DNA of 43,805 nt from Thermaurantimonas aggregans (GTDB taxonomy: Bacteria > Bacteroidota > Bacteroidia > Flavobacteriales > Schleiferiaceae). Of this stretch, positions 86 to 8,418 are shown one piece after another. The notes under the pieces were generated by a model, which had not been told where the DNA came from, did no database searches, and was given only the letters and a program-made list of their open reading frames with translations. Location: assembly GCF_003851885.1 (NCBI RefSeq), contig NZ_BHZE01000023.1:1-43805 (forward strand), in the 5' to 3' direction. The stretch's first letter is position 1; each line of letters opens with the position of its first letter. The position numbers and the translations under genes were made by a program.

Positions 86-125
86 AAATAAAAAAGAAGG
101 CGTCCTTTACTTTTTGGACACCTTC
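86..125 (-). terminator. Leftward-facing intrinsic terminator-like hairpin
   Basis: Arms at 96-105 (GAAGGCGTCC) and 116-125 (GGACACCTTC) pair over ten positions with a single C/A mismatch, around a 10-nt T-rich loop. On the plus strand the hairpin is preceded by an A-rich run at 86-95, which reads as a U-rich tail on the minus strand, so it would stop leftward transcription. No minus-strand gene lies to its right, since the next gene at 280 runs rightward. It may end an untranslated leftward transcript through the repeat at 133-229. The fold is clear; the function is inferred. Confidence 0.55.
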
Positions 126-132
126 AAAAATC

Positions 133-229
133 ATTAAACACTTTTACGACCCTCTGCGAGTTCTGCAGGAAAAAATCCTCCATTTTTAAATCCATCAGAT
201 TTAGAGAGAGGAAAAGAGGCTGAGTAAAA
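133..229. repeat. Intergenic repeat element, copy A (short form)
   Basis: This 97-bp segment shares both ends with the segment at 8190-8334. One end holds ATTAAAC followed by CTTTTA and, at 155-166, the exact 12-mer TGCGAGTTCTGC, then a GG..AA.AATCC stretch ending near 178. The other end is TGAGTAAAA (221-229), matching TGAGTAGAAA in copy B. The middle is about 48 bp shorter than in copy B. Read on the minus strand, both copies have an open frame containing PAELA followed by E or N and G, closed by a stop at the matching place. I do not recognise the family. Confidence 0.6.
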
Positions 230-240
230 GACGAAATATT

Positions 241-248
241 TACTTTTG
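241..248 (+). promoter_or_regulatory. Bacteroidota -7 promoter box
   Basis: TACTTTTG is an exact match to the TAnnTTTG -7 element of Bacteroidota promoters. It ends 31 nt before the TTG at 280 and 103 nt before the alternative GTG at 352. No clear TTG was seen at the usual -33 distance. It is the likely promoter of the giant PKD-repeat gene. Confidence 0.5.
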
Positions 249-279
249 AAATTCGATCGTTCATTCTTTTACAAAAAAT

Positions 280-3200
280 TTGAAACATAATAGGAAAATT
301 AATCCATTCGACCTCTTCTTTCAGCCAATTTTTGCTCATAATTCAACACTTGTGAAAATTCGCTCTGCCCAACTAATGGTAATCGTGTTCTTATTGCTGC
401 TCGGCATAAGGACTAATGCGCAATGGGGCATTGTGACTACTCCACCTTCAGCAAGCGATACGTTAGTTATATGCCGCAACTACCCTATTTTCTTTCAGGC
501 AGACACCAGTAGTTTCGGAGCACCGATCGATTCGGTGCGCTGGCTTTTGCCCGGTGCTACACCCGCTACTGCTACTACTTTCAATGTTCAAAATGTAAAA
601 TATAGTGCCTCTGGTATCTATTTGACTCGGCTTATTCTTTATCAAGGTGCTTCGGGTACTGAAGATTCGCTATATGTGCAGGTATTACCCTCAGTAACGC
701 CTTCTATTCAAATACTTAATACTACGTCCGGCAGCTTTCAGGGCATCACCACTTTTTCCCGCTGTGCAGGGCTTTCTATCGATACGTTTGTCATCGTAAA
801 CACCACTTCGCAGCCCTATACAAAGTTTTATTTTGACTTTGGCGATGGTACTACCGACTCGGGTACCACCTTCAGCACATACAACAAGGTTTACGCAAAT
901 TCGGGCTATTACAACTGTGCTTTGGCACTCCAATCCTCCAATGGCTGCTGGGACACGCTGAAGTTTCGGATTTTTTATGGCTCAAATCCGGCTGTAGGAC
1001 TTGGCACTCAGGGCAACAATACCGGATGTGTAGGCAGTCAGGGAGTTACATTGGCTTTCGATATACTCAACACAGCAAACAATCCACCGGGTACGACCTA
1101 CACGATTGAAGTAAGTGATGGCAGTCCGCCGATTATGTTCAATCATCCGCCCCCGGCACAATATTTACACACGTTTACCATCGGTTCATGTGGTTATACT
1201 GTACCAGGTGGGGGCGGTAATAATGCATTCTATGTTCGCATTACTGCCACTAATCCCTGCGATGTGAGCGTCGCACAAATCAGCCCAATTCGCATTGCAT
1301 CTCCCATTACTGCCGGCTTTAACAATCCCGACAGCGTCTGCGTGAGTCGTCAGGTAATCATTTCTGACCAAAGCCAAAAGGGGAGTATTCCCACCAACAC
1401 GAGTTGCGATAGTACTGGCCGCATCCTATGGAATATCACACCTGGTACCTTTACCATAAATGCCGGTTCGCTTGGCAACAGCAACAACTCCATCAATCCA
1501 CAAAGCTGGATTACAGGTTCTTCTACCCTTAATGTTACCTTCAATCAACCCGGTCTTTACCAGGTACGCCAGGTTGTAGCAAACAGCATAAACTGCGACT
1601 ATGACACACTCATAAAGACCATCTGTGTCAATCAATTGCCTGATTCCGGCTTCTCGATTTCCCCACTTCCAGCTTGCTCTGGCGACACCCTCCAGCTGAC
1701 CAATCTCGCCAACCTTGTCAACACCTGTAGAAACAATGAAGTCTATTACCAGATAACTCCTGCCACCGGCTGGTCGGCCATCGACAGCCTTCGCCATCCC
1801 AATCCGCAAGTTCGATTCAACACAGCTGGCCAGTACCAGATCCGCCAATTCGTTTATAATTATTGCGATACCGCATCGGTAGATACTGCCATCATTATTA
1901 GCGGTCGGCCAGGGCTGCTTCTGCCACAGGATACCGTGCACTGCGGATCGCTGATGCTCAATTTTTCGGCTGCAGGACTGCAACCTCAGGAATTCGACAG
2001 CCTCTCGCCCATTACTTCCCGGCTTTGGACGATCACCCCTGCCACGGGTTGGTCTTTCATTTCAGGCTCAGCCACTTCAGCACAACCTACTCTACAATTC
2101 AACCAGGCAGGTACCTATCAGCTTGTACTTCAACTTCAGAATGGCTGCGGCACTTCCGCTGATACCATGTTTGTCACCATCTATGACCTGCCATCGGCCA
2201 ATCCGCTCAACGATACACTGGTGTGCTATGGCAGCAGTGTGTCGTTTTCACTTCAAAACCTCACCGGCCAGGCTCCCGTGCAAGTTTCATGGGCATCCAA
2301 CCCACCAGGCTTCACAGCTGCTGGCCCTTCAGCTACTTTTTCAAACCTTACCCAATCCACCCAATTCTTCGCTTTCCTGCTAGATGCAAACGGCTGCCGC
2401 GATACGCTTACGTCCCTTGTCACCGTAAATCCGCAAATCATTGCCAACGCCGGATCCGGGGGCATCATCTGCGATACAAACAATATTCAGCTCAATGGCT
2501 CAGCCTCAGGCGGTAGCGGGCAACTTCAAATCCAATGGACACCAGCTACAGGCCTGAGCAATCCAAACATTCTAAATCCCACAGTCAGTGGTTTGACTTC
2601 CAGTACGTGGTTCACCCTCACCGTATCCGATTCCGTTGGTTGTACGGCGTTTGATTCTGTGCTGATTGCCGTAAATCCGCTGCTCACAGCTTTTGCTGGC
2701 AACGACACCGTAGTGTGCAGCGGCAGTCCATTCCAACTGCAAGCCATCGCTACAGGCGGTGCCGGCAGCTATCAGTACAATTGGTCACCGGCCACAGGTC
2801 TGAGCAATCCAAACATTCCCAATCCCAACGTTTCAGGTCTAAATGCCCCTCAGCAATACATCCTCACTGTAACTGACTCCCTCGGCTGTATTGCCCGTGA
2901 TACGGTTGTTATTTCGCTCTTTCCACCTATCACAGTCGATGCTGGTCAAAATGTAGAAACGTGTTTTGGCGAAAACATTCAACTCTCGGGCACGGTATCA
3001 GGTGGCACCGGACCGCTCGCGTACCAATGGCAACCGGCCGCATTCCTCCAAAACGCTACCACACTTACTCCCACCTTTGTTAATCCTCAACAAAACCAAT
3101 GGTTTTACCTGTATGCTACCGATTCGGTAGGCTGTCAGTCGGTGGATAGCGTATTTGTTTTGGTCGCACCTCTTCCTGCGGCCAATGCCGGACCTGACAC

Positions 3201-6200
3201 TACCATTTGCAAAGGCGATAGCTACACATTGGGGCAACCCGGCAATCCGGCCTTCCAGTATGTGTGGACGTCAATTCCGCCAGCAGTATTAGCCGCAACG
3301 CCACAGATTCAGGCTATAGACACAGCCAATTACACCTATATTCTTCAGGTAATTGATACCCTTACGGGCTGTGTGAATTACGATACGGCTACAGTCAACA
3401 TCTCACTGCCGCCTATTGCTGGCTTTACCATTTCTACCGATAGCGGATGTTCACCGCTCCCTGTCCTGCTAACCGACACTGGCACAGCTGCCCCCACTCG
3501 CCGTTGGTACGCCGGCAACACCCTCATTGGTACTTCTGCTGCCTTGACCTACACAGCTACCAATCTTTCAAATACTAACGACAACATCATTCCTATCTCC
3601 CTTGTGCTCATCAATGCACAGGGCTGTCGCGACAGTGTTACTCGTTGGATCAACGTCTTTCCAAATCCGCTGGCTTCTTTTCTTCCCTCCGACACCGTGA
3701 TTTGTGCAGGCGACAGTATTACCGTAATCAATCAGTCTTTGGGGAAAAATCCCTTGCAGTACCAATGGACGGTTACCGGCAGCGCTGCTATCAGTAATAC
3801 CACCTCAGCTCAGCCAACCTTTTATTTTCCAAACTTTCAAGGCAATCAAGACAGTCTTTATATCATCACCCTCACAGTTACATCGCCTGATGGCTGTGTG
3901 GACGATACTTCCATTACAATTCGTGTGAAAGCCCAACCAGTGGCAGCATTTGCTCTTTCCAATTCATCCGGCTGTGGGGGTGCTTCGATTATAGCGACCA
4001 TTGCTAATCACTCACCGACCAATACGTATCAATTTACCTCAACACCTACCCTGAATTTTTCCCTTTCTGGTAATACAGCCACCTTCACTCCTCCCCCATC
4101 TAGCAACGACTCCGTAACCTACACCATTCGAATGACCCTCACCACGCCTGAAGGTTGTATCGATTCTACCTCTGCTGCATTTACCGTCTATCCCACGCCC
4201 ACGGCTTCTTTTGTGTCTTTGCCGCCTGATACATGTACGCCAGCGACTTTTTCTTTTACCAATCTTTCGTCCACCAACCTTACTGGAAGTCCTCAAAGCG
4301 CCTTGTCTTTTCAATGGAACTTTGGTGGATTGGGCACTTCTTCAGCGGCCAATCCTTCCTTTACCTTCACCAATTCGGGCACTTCTGACACTACCTATCC
4401 AGTTACATTAATTGCCACAAATGCTTTTGGCTGCTCCGACACAGTGGTAGGCCAAGTTACAATACATCCCCTGCCAAAGGCTCAGCTACAAGTTATTTCC
4501 AATGCTGATTGTGCACCTTTTGCAGTGGATACTTCTCAAATTAAAGCAGTCGATTACCCCGGGGCCAATGGTCAATACATCTGGAAAGTTCTTTCTTCAG
4601 CCAACACGCTGCTGGCTACTTTCACAGGCCTCAATGCACTTCAATACAACCTTACTGCCCCAAATGACACTGTCATCATCCGGCTGATTGCGGTGAGTCC
4701 TTTTGGCTGTGGACAAGACTCCGTACAAACTTTGGCTTACACGTTGTCAAACCCGGTAGCCAACTTTAGCTTATCAACTCAGGTCGGCTGTAGTCCGCTA
4801 TCCGTACAGGCGTACGATTCCAGCTCCGGAGGCATTCAGTACCAATGGTTTGTAAACAACCTACCGGTTTCTACTCTTCCGAATCCTTCCTTTACGTTCC
4901 AAAACAATCAACTTACTGACAGCACCTTAATCATTAAACTGCGCATTAGCACCCTATCGGGCTGTGCAGATTCTCTGGAAAATACCATTACCATCCTCGG
5001 TCGGCCACAGGCTAACTTCCTCCCACCGACCGGATGTGTGGGCGATACCTTGCAGTTTATTGGCCAAAATACCAGCCTTCGTCCACTCACCAACTTCTTG
5101 TGGAATTTTGGCAATGGCGATACCGCTACCACTGCAAATGCCTCCTATGCGTATCACACTGCCGGCACGTACTTGGTTTCCTATACCATTACCGATTCGG
5201 CCGGATGTACGCATTCGAAGATTGACACCGTTATCATCCGTCCTAAGCCTTCAGTGAATTTTGCCGTCACCGGCGGTTGCTTTTCTGACAGCATCTGCCA
5301 GGGTATTCCTACCCAAATGACCGACCAATCATCCCTTCCGCCTTTAGGCGGCAGCATCTCGACTCGACAATGGGACATTGGCAACAACGGCATCATCAAT
5401 TACACCACACCCACCATCACCCACACCTTTCCCGATACCGGCTTGGTGTCTGTGCGCTTGCGCGTAGTATCGCAGTTTGGCTGCGACTCCGAACGCGTGA
5501 AAGATTTCTATGTCTTGCCGGCTCCTGTCGCCTCTTTTACCCTTAATACCTCCATCATCTGTGCCGGCCAACCCTCTCCGTTTGTCACCCAACTTTCCTC
5601 CGGTTTTATACAAGCTTATCAATGGACACTTTACGCCCTCAATGCCTCTAATCAGCCCGTCGTAATCACTTCAGGAAATCAATTTTTTCCACCGACATTA
5701 CCTGTTCTTACCGGTTCTTTGGTCAATGACACTACTTACTACCTAAAGCTGGTGGTTAGCAGCTGTTGTGCGGCCGACAGCCTCGTTCGCACCATCACCG
5801 TAAGGCCACAGCCCACAGCCGCATTTTTGGCCTCTGATACAGTGGGGTGCAGCCCAAAACTCATTAATTTTCTGATAGATGGTCAGACTCTGGGCCAACC
5901 TGACTACATCCTTATCAACTGGGGCGACGGTAGTCCGATCGATACAGCTTATCCAACTACCATCATCACACCACAAGGTCCTATCACGCAATTTGGCATT
6001 AAAACCCACTTGTTTACCTACAACGGCCCTAATAACGATACCCTTTACACTGTAAGCATGACAGCCGTAAATGGCTGTGGTTCGTCCACCTTCACCCGCA
6101 CGGTACGCATCATCCGCCAAACGCTCAACGGCTTTTTTACCGCATCTCCTGGCTCCGGGTGTTCCCCACTTACTGTTCAGTTTCAGGATCAGACTCCCAA

Positions 6201-8016
6201 TAGCACCACTACTGCCTGGTGCTTCAACTTTAATACCACTACCAACCAATGCATCGGTGGAGTCGCTACGGGCAAAAGTGTACAGTTTACCTTCCCGGCA
6301 GCAGGCACTTACAACGTTTCGATGACCGTAACCGATGGTTGTTCAGTTGATACGGTTTATCAGCTCATTCAGGTCAATCCCTCACCAGTAGCCGACTTCA
6401 CGTTCAACAACAACGTCTGTCTCGGCGATACTACCTATTTCACATCATCCGCTACTATTACAGGTGGTACCATCACGGGCTATCAATGGAACTTCGGCAA
6501 CGGCCAAACCTCGATCCTACAAAATCCGGCTGTCCGCTTTGATACTGCCGGCACCTACACGGTATGCCTCACCGTCACAAGCTTCAACGGTTGCACACAC
6601 ACCGTTTGCAAGTCTGTTACCATACAGCCTATGCCTGTCGTACAATTTACTGCTCAGAATACGTGTCTCAATCAGCAGCCCATCACCTTCACAAATCAAA
6701 CGATTCTCGCTTCCGGCACCCTTACCTACACCCTCTGGGATTTTGGCGATGGCAACACTTCCACCCAGCTCAATCCCCAGCACATCTATGCAACGCCCGG
6801 CACTTATACGGTAACCCTCATTCACGGCACCCAGGCAGGCTGTTACGACACGGCTACGCAACAAATCACCATTCACCCTGTGCCCACTGCAGCTTTTACG
6901 GCTGCCTCCGTCTCGCAGACCGTATGTGGAGCCCCTCAAACTTTTATCTTTACCAATCTATCCACAGGCGCCCAGGGATACCTCTGGGACTTCGACGCAC
7001 TTGGCAATCCGGGATTCTTTACCTCCACCCTGTCTAATCCCACCTTCACCTACACCTCCACCGGACTCTATCGCGTTCGCCTTATCACCACCAATGCCCT
7101 TGGCTGCTCCGACACCTCAGAGCAAGACATCATTGTATCACCCTTACCCGTTGCCGGATTTTCAATCTCCGATACCAGCGGCTGCCAGCCTCTTGAGGTT
7201 ATTTTCACCAATCTGAGTACTTTCCCTGATTCTACATTAGGCCAGATCGTGCGCTGGCGTTACGAGTTTGGCGACGGCACCGTGCAAGACGGCCCATCGC
7301 CCAATGCCACCCACCTCTATCAGCAGGCCGGCACCTACATTGTCCGACTCATCGTCGAGACCAATCTCGGCTGTCTCGACACCTTCCAGTTCCCTATACC
7401 CATCGAAGTACTGCCCACTCCCACCGCCATCTTTAGCTGGGACATCGACGAGCGCGGCCTTGTCGTCTTCACCAATCAATCCATCCACCTTCCGGGCCAG
7501 ACCACCTTCACATGGCAAATGGGCGACGGCACCACCATCGTAGCTGACAGCGTGCGTTACCGCTACCGCGTCAATCGCCTCCTGAGCGACTACACCTTTA
7601 CCGTCTGCCTCACTGCAGCCCACACCAATGGTTGCTCCCACGACACCTGTCTCACCGTATTTCTGCCCCGCCTCAATCTCACCGTCCCAAATGCCCTGGC
7701 ACCCGATGCTCCCGACGCCGGCCAGGCAGGCCTCTTCCTGCCCAAGGGGCATTCCCTGCGCGAATATGAGCTGCTTATCTTCGATCAGTGGGGCAATCTC
7801 GTTTTCCGTACCGACTCCCTCACCCCTGACCGTCAGCCCGCCATCGGCTGGAATGGCCGCCACTTCAACACAGGCGCCGAACTACCTTCCGGCACCTATG
7901 TCTGGAAAATTCGCGCCCTCTTTATCGACGGCACCCGCTGGCCAGGCTCCAATCTCGAAACCGACTCCCCCGACGACAAGCCCCACACCAGCGGCTACAT
8001 CTACCTTATTCGCTAA
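280..8016 (+). CDS. Giant PKD/SprB-type repeat protein with type B T9SS sorting domain
   Basis: A 2578-residue exported protein, probably a surface adhesin or gliding-related filament; this role is inferred from architecture. A signal peptide ends at TNAQ (about residues 26-48), followed by about twenty modules of 80-100 residues. Many end in GC followed by D and T or S. PKD-type FGDG or GDG turns occur near residues 186, 1606 (FGNG), 1879, 2152, 2327 and 2410. Residues about 770-1030 hold SprB-like modules, two sharing PATGLSNPNI. The last 110 residues (about 2467-2578) match the gliding-motility-associated C-terminal domain that directs T9SS secretion, including FDQWGNLVF and SGTYVWKI. The start is uncertain: TTG 280 fits the promoter spacing, GTG 352 gives a compact signal peptide, and ATG 376 lacks a basic N-region. 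The 3' end is much richer in G+C than the 5' end. Confidence 0.88.
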   Translation: MKHNRKINPFDLFFQPIFAHNSTLVKIRSAQLMVIVFLLLLGIRTNAQWGIVTTPPSASDTLVICRNYPIFFQADTSSFGAPIDSVRWLLPGATPATATTFNVQNVKYSASGIYLTRLILYQGASGTEDSLYVQVLPSVTPSIQILNTTSGSFQGITTFSRCAGLSIDTFVIVNTTSQPYTKFYFDFGDGTTDSGTTFSTYNKVYANSGYYNCALALQSSNGCWDTLKFRIFYGSNPAVGLGTQGNNTGCVGSQGVTLAFDILNTANNPPGTTYTIEVSDGSPPIMFNHPPPAQYLHTFTIGSCGYTVPGGGGNNAFYVRITATNPCDVSVAQISPIRIASPITAGFNNPDSVCVSRQVIISDQSQKGSIPTNTSCDSTGRILWNITPGTFTINAGSLGNSNNSINPQSWITGSSTLNVTFNQPGLYQVRQVVANSINCDYDTLIKTICVNQLPDSGFSISPLPACSGDTLQLTNLANLVNTCRNNEVYYQITPATGWSAIDSLRHPNPQVRFNTAGQYQIRQFVYNYCDTASVDTAIIISGRPGLLLPQDTVHCGSLMLNFSAAGLQPQEFDSLSPITSRLWTITPATGWSFISGSATSAQPTLQFNQAGTYQLVLQLQNGCGTSADTMFVTIYDLPSANPLNDTLVCYGSSVSFSLQNLTGQAPVQVSWASNPPGFTAAGPSATFSNLTQSTQFFAFLLDANGCRDTLTSLVTVNPQIIANAGSGGIICDTNNIQLNGSASGGSGQLQIQWTPATGLSNPNILNPTVSGLTSSTWFTLTVSDSVGCTAFDSVLIAVNPLLTAFAGNDTVVCSGSPFQLQAIATGGAGSYQYNWSPATGLSNPNIPNPNVSGLNAPQQYILTVTDSLGCIARDTVVISLFPPITVDAGQNVETCFGENIQLSGTVSGGTGPLAYQWQPAAFLQNATTLTPTFVNPQQNQWFYLYATDSVGCQSVDSVFVLVAPLPAANAGPDTTICKGDSYTLGQPGNPAFQYVWTSIPPAVLAATPQIQAIDTANYTYILQVIDTLTGCVNYDTATVNISLPPIAGFTISTDSGCSPLPVLLTDTGTAAPTRRWYAGNTLIGTSAALTYTATNLSNTNDNIIPISLVLINAQGCRDSVTRWINVFPNPLASFLPSDTVICAGDSITVINQSLGKNPLQYQWTVTGSAAISNTTSAQPTFYFPNFQGNQDSLYIITLTVTSPDGCVDDTSITIRVKAQPVAAFALSNSSGCGGASIIATIANHSPTNTYQFTSTPTLNFSLSGNTATFTPPPSSNDSVTYTIRMTLTTPEGCIDSTSAAFTVYPTPTASFVSLPPDTCTPATFSFTNLSSTNLTGSPQSALSFQWNFGGLGTSSAANPSFTFTNSGTSDTTYPVTLIATNAFGCSDTVVGQVTIHPLPKAQLQVISNADCAPFAVDTSQIKAVDYPGANGQYIWKVLSSANTLLATFTGLNALQYNLTAPNDTVIIRLIAVSPFGCGQDSVQTLAYTLSNPVANFSLSTQVGCSPLSVQAYDSSSGGIQYQWFVNNLPVSTLPNPSFTFQNNQLTDSTLIIKLRISTLSGCADSLENTITILGRPQANFLPPTGCVGDTLQFIGQNTSLRPLTNFLWNFGNGDTATTANASYAYHTAGTYLVSYTITDSAGCTHSKIDTVIIRPKPSVNFAVTGGCFSDSICQGIPTQMTDQSSLPPLGGSISTRQWDIGNNGIINYTTPTITHTFPDTGLVSVRLRVVSQFGCDSERVKDFYVLPAPVASFTLNTSIICAGQPSPFVTQLSSGFIQAYQWTLYALNASNQPVVITSGNQFFPPTLPVLTGSLVNDTTYYLKLVVSSCCAADSLVRTITVRPQPTAAFLASDTVGCSPKLINFLIDGQTLGQPDYILINWGDGSPIDTAYPTTIITPQGPITQFGIKTHLFTYNGPNNDTLYTVSMTAVNGCGSSTFTRTVRIIRQTLNGFFTASPGSGCSPLTVQFQDQTPNSTTTAWCFNFNTTTNQCIGGVATGKSVQFTFPAAGTYNVSMTVTDGCSVDTVYQLIQVNPSPVADFTFNNNVCLGDTTYFTSSATITGGTITGYQWNFGNGQTSILQNPAVRFDTAGTYTVCLTVTSFNGCTHTVCKSVTIQPMPVVQFTAQNTCLNQQPITFTNQTILASGTLTYTLWDFGDGNTSTQLNPQHIYATPGTYTVTLIHGTQAGCYDTATQQITIHPVPTAAFTAASVSQTVCGAPQTFIFTNLSTGAQGYLWDFDALGNPGFFTSTLSNPTFTYTSTGLYRVRLITTNALGCSDTSEQDIIVSPLPVAGFSISDTSGCQPLEVIFTNLSTFPDSTLGQIVRWRYEFGDGTVQDGPSPNATHLYQQAGTYIVRLIVETNLGCLDTFQFPIPIEVLPTPTAIFSWDIDERGLVVFTNQSIHLPGQTTFTWQMGDGTTIVADSVRYRYRVNRLLSDYTFTVCLTAAHTNGCSHDTCLTVFLPRLNLTVPNALAPDAPDAGQAGLFLPKGHSLREYELLIFDQWGNLVFRTDSLTPDRQPAIGWNGRHFNTGAELPSGTYVWKIRALFIDGTRWPGSNLETDSPDDKPHTSGYIYLIR
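2554..2818 (+). repeat. Tandem module repeat inside the giant PKD gene
   Basis: A 19-nt identical stretch (CTGAGCAATCCAAACATTC) occurs at 2554-2572 and 2800-2818, exactly 246 bp or 82 codons apart, inside a longer imperfect match. It encodes the shared core of two neighbouring SprB-like modules. This is direct evidence that at least part of the gene grew by duplication of an 82-residue unit. Confidence 0.75.
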
Positions 8017-8052
8017 TCATTATCCGAAAAAAAATTTTCCTTCTGTAATTAT

Positions 8053-8187
8053 TTGACCCTGCCCCAAGCCATGGAGTCGACTGGCGCTTTCACCAATAGG
8101 ACTGCCCAGACTAAGTGCTGCCTGCGCTGTGAGCTTTCGCGCGTCCTCCGCATGCCTCACACGATGCGCAGCATGGCCAAGCGCTAA
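8053..8187. other. GC-rich intergenic segment of unknown origin
   Basis: Part of the 430-bp gap between the giant PKD gene and the VWA gene. My hand count gives 38 G+C in 8101-8160 (63%), against about 42% in ordinary parts of the window. It begins with TTGACCCTGCCCC and contains CGCAT/ATGCG inverted repeats near 8150-8168. The minus strand is open for about 50 codons, but I recognise no protein family and GC-rich DNA has few stops by chance. It could be a decayed mobile element or part of a longer repeat; I cannot decide. Confidence 0.4.
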
Positions 8188-8189
8188 GA

Positions 8190-8334
8190 ATTAAACTTTT
8201 AACCCTTTCTCATCCCATTTGCGAGTTCTGCGGGTAATAATCCCTTCTTTGTTGACGAAGGCAAGAAATACCTGAAAGTGCCAAGAAAGTTCGAAAGAGC
8301 TTTCGCTGGTAGGTGCCAGAGGGGTGAGTAGAAA
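8190..8334. repeat. Intergenic repeat element, copy B (long form)
   Basis: This segment matches the element at 133-229 at both ends: ATTAAACTTTTA, the 12-mer TGCGAGTTCTGC at 8220-8231 and AATCCC at one side, and GTGAGTAGAAA at the other. The longer middle carries inverted repeats CGAAAG/CTTTCG (8292-8305) and CTGG/CCAG (8306-8319), which could fold as RNA. On the minus strand an open frame runs through the element and ends in a PAELANG stretch, parallel to PAELAEG in copy A. It lies 113 bp upstream of the VWA gene. Whether it is a dispersed repeat, a structured RNA or a coding remnant is open. Confidence 0.6.
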
Positions 8335-8418
8335 TCCTTTGATAGGTTAAAAAAAGAGCACAAAAAAATCATTTTTATTGCTCTCACAGCATTTCGATGA
8401 ATCAAGCCATTTGCTACA

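What the first reader, a model, noticed from the sequence alone, without database searches (positions are those of the whole stretch)
133..8334. Two copies of an unrecognised intergenic element with conserved ends and a variable middle
Seen: 133-229 and 8190-8334 share ATTAAAC..CTTTTA, an exact 12-mer TGCGAGTTCTGC, a GG.AA.AATCC stretch and, at the far end, TGAGTA(A/G)AAA, but differ by about 48 bp in the middle. Both are upstream of plus-strand genes for exported proteins. On the minus strand both keep an open frame with FYS at one end and PAELA(E/N)G at the other, closed by a stop at the matching site. Copy B also has inverted repeats suited to RNA folding. This pattern fits a dispersed mobile or structured-RNA element, or decaying copies of a small gene. 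I know no family with this sequence.
Basis: partly seen in the sequence, partly recalled or inferred. Interest (0 to 1): 0.6.

Follow-up and report, generated by a model that had tools for sequence, protein, structure and literature searches.

The report
Modular repeat scattered between bacterial genes
The two matching stretches are weathered copies of a non-coding DNA repeat that occurs about forty times between genes in this bacterium, and one of its building blocks also occurs in hairpins beside a little-studied nuclease gene in related bacteria, which may be the enzyme that spreads such repeats.

Summary
In detail: copies A and B align better than all 2000 dinucleotide shuffles. They belong to a dispersed intergenic family, with 41 model matches in the window's genome, 1 in a same-genus genome (70% complete), and 2 marginal hits in 58 other genomes of the family. 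The middle difference is mainly one hairpin module, present in 10 of 18 aligned copies. I found no Rfam match, terminator or convincing covariation. Best reading: a decaying, non-autonomous modular repeat (BIME/BOX/MITE-like) lacking those families' defining marks. Its 5' module, ATCTGCGAGTTCTGCGGGA, is a Bacteroidota "CTGCG" hairpin unit (61 of 65 exact hits). Following it led to a stronger pattern: GxxExxY PD-(D/E)XK nuclease genes (PF13366) are bracketed by repeats of varied sequence in 51 of 64 loci against 3 of 170 control ORFs, as RAYT genes are by REPs. My limited paper searches found no report of this. That GxxExxY mobilises the window element is a hypothesis (about 0.25); transposition was not shown.

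The parts
123..231 (+). Copy A, short class (one hairpin module)
   Evidence: Model R1 match, E 9.1e-14 (in training set); alignment A1
153..174 (+). Copy A left module (CTGCG-type repeat unit, TCTGCGAGTTCTGCAGGAAAAA)
176..212 (+). Copy A middle hairpin (TCCTCC..AAATCCATCAGATTTAGAGAGAGGA)
   Evidence: Fold; AAATCCNNNGGATTTA-type motif also at G000 C1:30314 and C12:39887
217..229 (+). Copy A right-end motif (AGGCTGAGTAAAA)
8189..8337 (+). Copy B, long class (two hairpin modules)
   Evidence: Model R1 match, E 1.2e-25 (in training set); alignments A1 and A2
8217..8237 (+). Copy B left module (ATTTGCGAGTTCTGCGGGTAA)
8243..8261 (+). Copy B hairpin 1 (CCTTCTTTGTTGACGAAGG)
   Evidence: Fold; counterpart CCCTCTTTGTTGCC in other copies
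8285..8313 (+). Copy B hairpin 2 with its GGTAGG tail; this is the extra module that copy A lacks
   Evidence: (8279-8333 matches the C15 element, E 0.02)
8321..8333 (+). Copy B right-end motif (GGGGTGAGTAGAA)
8116..8164 (+). Decayed copy of a second, GC-rich repeat seen before several family copies in this genome
   Evidence: Alignment with a C15 copy scores 25.5 against a shuffle maximum of 18, and with a C31 stretch 22 against 17 (0 of 500 each); a third stretch tried did not match

Best explanation
Shown: A and B are two of about 41 matches of a non-coding, modular intergenic repeat that, in the 60 genomes of the family examined, is clearly found only in this genus. The modules are an AACTTTAACTAAAAC lead, a CTGCG left module, one or two hairpin modules, and a GGGGTGAGTAAAAA right end. 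Copies are diverged and lie in either orientation to neighbouring genes. Inferred: it is a selfish, non-autonomous DNA repeat that once spread by duplication or transposition in trans and is now decaying; it is neither a gene nor a cis-acting RNA. The modules appear to be shuffled parts of several repeat families. The left module is a unit of a Bacteroidota hairpin repeat, and GxxExxY (PDDEXK_3) nuclease genes are bracketed by repeats of this general kind; those nucleases are the best candidate for the enzyme that recognises such hairpins and spreads them, much as RAYT transposases do for REPs. Sub-confidences: dispersed non-coding modular family 0.95; selfish and decaying rather than host-functional 0.75; GxxExxY as mobiliser of CTGCG-type hairpins 0.28, and of this G000 family in particular 0.25.
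For: 41 matches at E<=0.01 in G000, 24 of them outside the training set (e.g. C1:4499 E 1.8e-18, C15 2.2e-18, C32 1.2e-12), two of the 24 being near-duplicates of training copies. Tandem arrays at C5 and C4 with copies 418-466 bp apart. Several end combinations: left+right, right+inverted right, left alone. 15 of 22 loci codirectional with the gene on the right-end side, p 0.13, so no clear fixed orientation (my tally; test). The exact 19-mer ATCTGCGAGTTCTGCGGGA lies in 65 stretches of a collection of 84,980 genomes, 61 titled as Bacteroidota and 40 of the 65 in two MAGs, where 27 of 40 are exact-ended palindromes of about 122-139 bp. Arms of those palindromes change together: within-copy identity 0.960 against 0.927 between copies, 0 of 5000 permutations. 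GxxExxY genes occur in 22 of 26 genomes taken mainly for their CTGCG matches. Inverted repeats flank 47 of 65 loci, against 2 of 170 control ORFs; inverted or direct, 51 of 64 against 3 of 170. G000 has one intact GxxExxY gene inside hairpin arrays and one broken copy about 150 bp from the exact left-module 18-mer.
Against: No empty site, target duplication or new insertion was shown. The one position tested shares its downstream flank with the same-genus genome, so spread is at least partly old, or the copy moved with the gene. No inverted left-module partner lies near the family copies: 3 of 28 had any match at up to 5 mismatches, two of them weak and over 300 bp away, the third being the pseudogene-side hairpin, which is not a family member. 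The intact G000 GxxExxY gene is surrounded by a different (CTGTG-type) repeat. The CTGCG motif itself, at no more than 1 mismatch, lies in only 3 of 30 GxxExxY loci against 0 of 30 Y1 loci (p 0.24); bracketing repeats differ in word from locus to locus. 13 of 64 loci show no repeat shared by both flanks. All but G001 of the 26 genomes are the window's own or were reached through CTGCG matches, and several loci come from one genome. PF05635 genes show the same bracketing (21 of 30), so it may be a general habit of small gene-plus-repeat cassettes.
Confidence: 0.67

Rival explanations
1. A structured RNA element (riboswitch-like leader, attenuator or small RNA) kept for regulation of neighbouring genes.
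For: Hairpin modules are conserved in sequence; copy B folds with z -2.05 on the plus strand; both window copies lie 5' of plus-strand genes; 6 of 23 predicted pairs in the 10 long copies have one double-sided change; 15 of 22 loci are codirectional with the next gene, a non-significant lean.
Against: 0 consensus pairs over 18 copies; no Rfam match in the window even at E 0.1; 7 of 22 loci face the other way; the second hairpin is optional; no terminator-like site at either copy.
Confidence: 0.1
2. Orphan REP/BIME repeats of a RAYT (Y1 transposase) that the genome has since lost; hairpin 2 ends in CGTCGGTAGG, which holds the tag words CGTC and GTAG of known palindromic repeat families.
For: Hairpin with GTAG next to the stem; some Y1 loci of other Bacteroidota carry repeats with CGGTAG tails; CGTC-tagged repeats are reported from Bacteroidetes (PMC3733652, passage), and TnpA-REP subclass 2.6, mostly Bacteroidetes, is flanked by atypical structures (PMC6006769, passage).
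Against: No Y1_Tnp gene in G000 or in the 70% complete G001. The CTGCG motif at up to 3 mismatches lies in 1 of 30 Y1 loci against 10 of 30 GxxExxY loci. The GTAG lies 3' of the hairpin, not at its 5' foot as canonical REPs have it.
Confidence: 0.12
3. Decaying copies of a small gene read on the minus strand.
For: The frame is open from FYS to PAELA in both window copies and has no stop between core and right end in 12 of 18 copies.
Against: Another minus frame is at least as open (stops in 4 of 18 copies against 6); wobble positions are not the most variable in the block tested. The translations were only read by eye, not searched against protein families.
Confidence: 0.03
4. Classical MITE of an IS element with terminal inverted repeats TTTTACTCACC..GGTGAGTAAAA, of which the left-module form is a rearranged derivative.
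For: Two elements, at C15 and C1, carry the right end at both sides in inverted orientation; array copies at C5 and C4 start with the inverted right end.
Against: Only those two symmetric elements (4 of 23 right-end hits, both strands counted) in the 163 kb held; no target duplication visible by eye at C15; a parental IS was not searched for.
Confidence: 0.15

Closest known systems
BOX repeats of Streptococcus pneumoniae (PMC3049150, abstract read)
   Same: Small interspersed repeats with extensive secondary structure, nearly confined to one lineage, judged parasitic, spread in the past and now slow; modular build with end modules and an optional middle (modularity recalled).
   Different: Different phylum; boxA/boxB/boxC sequences were not compared.
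REP/BIME elements with RAYT transposases (PMC2817692, abstract read; PMC6006769, passages read)
   Same: Mosaic of palindromic modules between genes; in relatives, a gene bracketed by repeats in inverted orientation.
   Different: No RAYT in G000, no 5' GTAG foot, elements of about 100-150 bp; the bracketed gene is a PD-(D/E)XK nuclease, not a HUH transposase.
GTAG- and CGTC-tagged palindromic repeats (PMC3733652, one passage read)
   Same: Palindromes with such tag words; CGTC repeats reported from Bacteroidetes; hairpin 2 here ends CGTCGGTAGG.
   Different: Not compared with that paper's consensus sequences; the left and right ends here are extra.
MITEs in Bacteroidota (PMC9769881, abstract read; PMC4596501, search listing only)
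   Same: Short, multicopy, lineage-specific.
   Different: No terminal inverted repeats in copies A and B, no parental IS known, no target duplication seen.
23S rRNA intervening sequences (PMC4990558, passages read)
   Same: Small ORF inside inverted repeats, an arrangement that GxxExxY and PF05635 loci resemble here.
   Different: The window copies are between protein genes, carry no ORF and lack a long terminal stem.

Membership tests
REP/BIME (RAYT-mobilised) | Y1 (HUH) RAYT transposase encoded in the genome | tested here: not met
   PF01797: 0 of 1 in G000; G000 and G001 also 0
REP/BIME (RAYT-mobilised) | 5' GT[AG]G at the foot of the palindrome | tested here: not met
   By reading: GTAG only 3' of hairpin 2; canonical position from PMC6006769
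MITE | Terminal inverted repeats | tested here: not met
   Absent in A and B; present in two C15/C1 elements
MITE | Target-site duplication | tested here: inconclusive
   None seen by eye at C15; copies too decayed for a fair test
MITE | Parental IS with the same ends | not tested
   No search of IS ends was made
Rfam RNA families | Match to a covariance model | tested here: not met
Protein-coding gene | Frame selectively open, wobble positions most variable | tested here: not met
   Stops in 6 of 18 copies against 8 and 4 in the other minus frames; pairwise difference 0.15, 0.26, 0.18 at codon positions 1, 2, 3
Intrinsic terminator | GC hairpin followed by a T run | tested here: not met
   0 found at either site
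Bacteroidota CTGCG hairpin repeats (unnamed) | TCTGCGNNNTCTGCGGGA-type unit | tested here: met
   Exact 12-mer and 1 mismatch in 17 bases in A and B; exact 19-mer in 61 Bacteroidota-titled stretches of 65
Bacteroidota CTGCG hairpin repeats (unnamed) | Both arms of the hairpin present | tested here: not met
   No inverted partner within 400 bp of A or B at up to 5 mismatches
Bacteroidota CTGCG hairpin repeats (unnamed) | Association with a GxxExxY gene | tested here: inconclusive
   Gene family in G000; one broken copy next to the exact 18-mer, intact copy among other repeats; those are at C6 and C25, not at the window contig C23

The most novel reading that the evidence does not exclude
GxxExxY (PDDEXK_3) proteins are hairpin-processing nucleases that stand to a Bacteroidota-wide class of intergenic hairpin repeats (CGCAGATTT/CTGCG and similar words) as RAYT transposases stand to REPs: the gene travels between repeat hairpins, and solo hairpins, including the left half of the window element, are its non-autonomous offspring. 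This would be a repeat-spreading system built on a PD-(D/E)XK nuclease rather than a HUH enzyme.
Probability: 0.28. Interest if true: 0.78.

Novelty: new variant of a known kind. Interest (0 to 1): 0.5.

Why it matters
Intergenic hairpin repeats of Bacteroidota clutter annotation with spurious ORFs (recalled) and can break assemblies (copies here lie at the ends of contigs C1 and C20), yet six sequence words of them occur in no paper of the library. Linking such repeats to a widespread, uncharacterised nuclease family gives a testable candidate for how they arise, and a function to test for GxxExxY proteins, a name found in only two papers of the library, one seen as a passage not about function and one as a listing.

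Tried and rejected
RAYT partner: none in G000; the Y1 genes of other CTGCG-bearing genomes carry their own repeats, and the CTGCG motif lies in 1 of 30 of their loci at up to 3 mismatches, or 2 of 30 weakly with another pattern at 4. Small gene: not supported. Rfam RNA: none. Terminator: none. Zinc-ribbon peptide CEFC on the plus strand: stops in 13 of 18 copies between core and right end. Integron attC-like arrays, suggested by the 420-460 bp spacing at C5 and by the G274 region: not pursued; no ORF of 80 or more codons recurs in every C5 unit, and in G274 the repeated gene is a 97% identical GxxExxY duplication. tRNA: none in the window. Strict triple-unit pattern over the phylum: 8 of 296 genomes at 1 mismatch, 0 in the reversed control, so the strict form is sparse. 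PF05635 genes are also bracketed by repeats (21 of 30), of other words. Script one search failed part-way; one search did its work another way. An earlier hand count of 7 of 18 copies with stops was mended to 6 of 18, and the odds of the small-gene rival were raised from 0.02 to 0.03 for that.

Row handling: one search used 28 of 30 GxxExxY and 28 of 30 Y1 loci (2 of each dropped by the script's flank and N filter). One search added 37 genes in 36 fetched regions, leaving out matches weaker than about E 1e-28 and the tandem partner already inside L279. One search required 300 bases of flank (64 loci) and 60 shuffles; inverted alone it gave 48 of 64 and 3 of 170. One of the ten motif-bearing loci (L278) has its hit over 1 kb from the gene, and seven of the ten are at 3 mismatches only. 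In the orientation tally I merged array copies and dropped C24:38224 (inside a gene), C6:92665 and C1:163525 (not model matches) and C5:138229 (no gene in reach), leaving 22; with C1:163525 it is 15 of 23. One search used stricter filters that lose weak matches. The search for 'PDDEXK_3' in papers was inconclusive.
Full report
Observation. The two stretches are as described, and their similarity exceeds all 2000 dinucleotide shuffles under two scoring schemes. The window is contig C23 of a 2.67-Mb, 57-contig genome, G000.

The family. Searches of the own genome with copy B, the 12-mer, an 18-mer and two whole elements brought out many partial matches. Laid side by side they share an architecture: an A/T-rich lead (AACTTTAACTAAAACTAAAACTTTTTCTGCGCCC), the left module ATCTGCGAGTTCTGCGGGAAA, a hairpin rich in CCCTCTTT..AGAGAGGGG, in the long class a second hairpin CCGACAAAGCTC..GAGCTTTCGTCGG followed by TAGGGG, and the right end GGGGTGAGTAAAAA. 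Some elements have the right end inverted at the left side. A sequence-only model of 18 copies (17 from G000, 1 from G001) finds 41 matches at E<=0.01 in G000, 24 of them not in the training set (two of these being near-duplicates of training copies), 1 in G001 of the same genus (70% complete), and two matches at E 0.004-0.005 among the other 58 genomes of the family. At C5, C4 and the end of C1 the element is part of a tandem array, with copies 418-466 bp apart at C5 and C4.

What it is not. There is no Rfam match in the window even at E 0.1, nor in 14 other loci at gathering level apart from one tRNA. RNAalifold gives no pairs over 18 copies and a weak consensus over 10. No terminator-like site lies at either copy. 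Of 22 loci with a readable gene on the right-end side, 15 are codirectional and 7 opposed (p 0.13; my tally with a crude ORF caller, test), so the element does not clearly behave as a leader of one gene.

Age. The single G001 copy lies upstream of a stretch that aligns with the region downstream of G000 copy C5:64670 (score 90.5, shuffle maximum 18.5), while upstream flanks do not align (11 against a mean of 10). That copy is therefore old, or travelled with the gene. Copies are diverged (mean column identity 61% in A1) except within arrays.

The left module elsewhere. The exact 19-mer ATCTGCGAGTTCTGCGGGA occurs in 65 stretches of the 84,980-genome collection, with records of the window's own genome possibly left out; 61 are Bacteroidota by title, 18 from MAG-362 and 22 from SAP1, and four are of other phyla (my count of titles). 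In those two MAGs 27 of the 40 stretches show it as both arms of a palindrome of about 122-139 bp; over these 27 the arms of one copy agree more with each other than with other copies (0.960 against 0.927, 0 of 5000 permutations; 20 matched and 37 one-armed or unequal changes). In G000 the inverted partner is missing, so the window element carries only half of that hairpin. The strict triple-unit pattern is found in 8 of 296 genomes of the phylum with no control hit.

The nuclease. In G274 such hairpins flank two 97% identical genes of PF13366/TIGR04256 (GxxExxY, PD-(D/E)XK superfamily). The family is present in 22 of the 26 genomes searched: the window's own, its same-genus relative and 24 reached through CTGCG matches. 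Testing 400 bp on each side, inverted repeats stronger than all shuffles bracket 21 of 28 and 26 of 37 loci, against 2 of 170 ORFs from 20 control stretches of 12 kb in twelve genomes (Fisher p 6e-32). Of the 170, 26 had at least 100 bp of intergenic space on both sides, none of them positive. With direct repeats allowed the figures are 51 of 64 and 3 of 170. Y1 (RAYT-type) loci, a class known to be repeat-bracketed, give 20 of 28, but with repeats of another kind. The CTGCG motif itself at up to 3 mismatches is in 10 of 30 GxxExxY loci and 1 of 30 Y1 loci (p 0.006), but at no more than 1 mismatch only in 3 of 30 and 0 of 30; the bracketing words vary from locus to locus. The loci are not independent, and the genomes were chosen for the motif. 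In one genome a GxxExxY gene is bracketed by two complete hairpins of the CGCAGATT/CTGCG kind (L297); in MAG-362 (L284) an intact hairpin of the window's unit sits directly upstream of such a gene. G000 itself has one intact gene of 123 codons with GPGLLESAYE and IDLLVENKVIVEIK motifs (my reading), embedded in arrays of another hairpin repeat, and a broken copy about 150 bp from the exact left-module 18-mer at C6:92665. PF05635 genes show the same bracketing with other repeat words (21 of 30); G000 has none.

Reading. The window element is best seen as a decaying, non-autonomous, mosaic intergenic repeat. Its spread by a trans-acting enzyme is inferred; GxxExxY is the candidate that the neighbourhood evidence suggests, but for the G000 family the link rests on one shared module and one pseudogene neighbour.

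Literature. A search for six sequence words of these repeats found no paper. 'GxxExxY' occurs in two papers of the library, one seen as a passage, one as a listing; a search for PDDEXK_3 was inconclusive. RAYT, BOX, TnpA-REP, tagged-palindrome, Cardinium MITE and Coxiella IVS papers were seen as abstracts or passages. Subscription literature is not covered, so novelty in print is not established.

Noticed in passing
window 8116-8164; G000 C15, C31, C3 and others: A second, GC-rich dispersed repeat (..GCGCGCCCTTCGCATGCCTCACGCGAGG..) precedes several family copies; the word CCTCACGCG occurs 12 times in the 163 kb held (stretches chosen around the repeats), where about 1.2 are expected at equal base frequencies.
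   Followed up: partly
L345-L374 (PF05635 loci; family in 25 of 26 genomes): Genes of the 23S rRNA intervening-sequence protein family are bracketed by arrays of short repeat words in inverted orientation in 21 of 30 loci, with different words at different loci.
   Followed up: partly
G000 C25:3000-4400 (L287): Intact GxxExxY gene embedded in roughly 80-bp hairpin tandem arrays (CTCTGTGTAACTCTGTGCCC..) on both sides.
   Followed up: partly
L082 3700-4800, L083 2500-3300, L084 1-400: Tandem arrays with a period of about 420-460 bp that join the element to GC-rich sequence and to TTTTTGGTTCCTTTTTGTGTCAAGACAAAAAGGAACG; the C1 array lies at a contig end and may break the assembly.
   Followed up: no
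window 280-8016: 2578-codon ORF with PKD repeats and a CHU_C type IX secretion signal directly downstream of copy A.
   Followed up: no
L161 (Lentisphaerae MAG): One of the four 19-mer hits outside Bacteroidota looks repeat-like too, with GACGCAGATGAACGCAGACA nearby.
   Followed up: no
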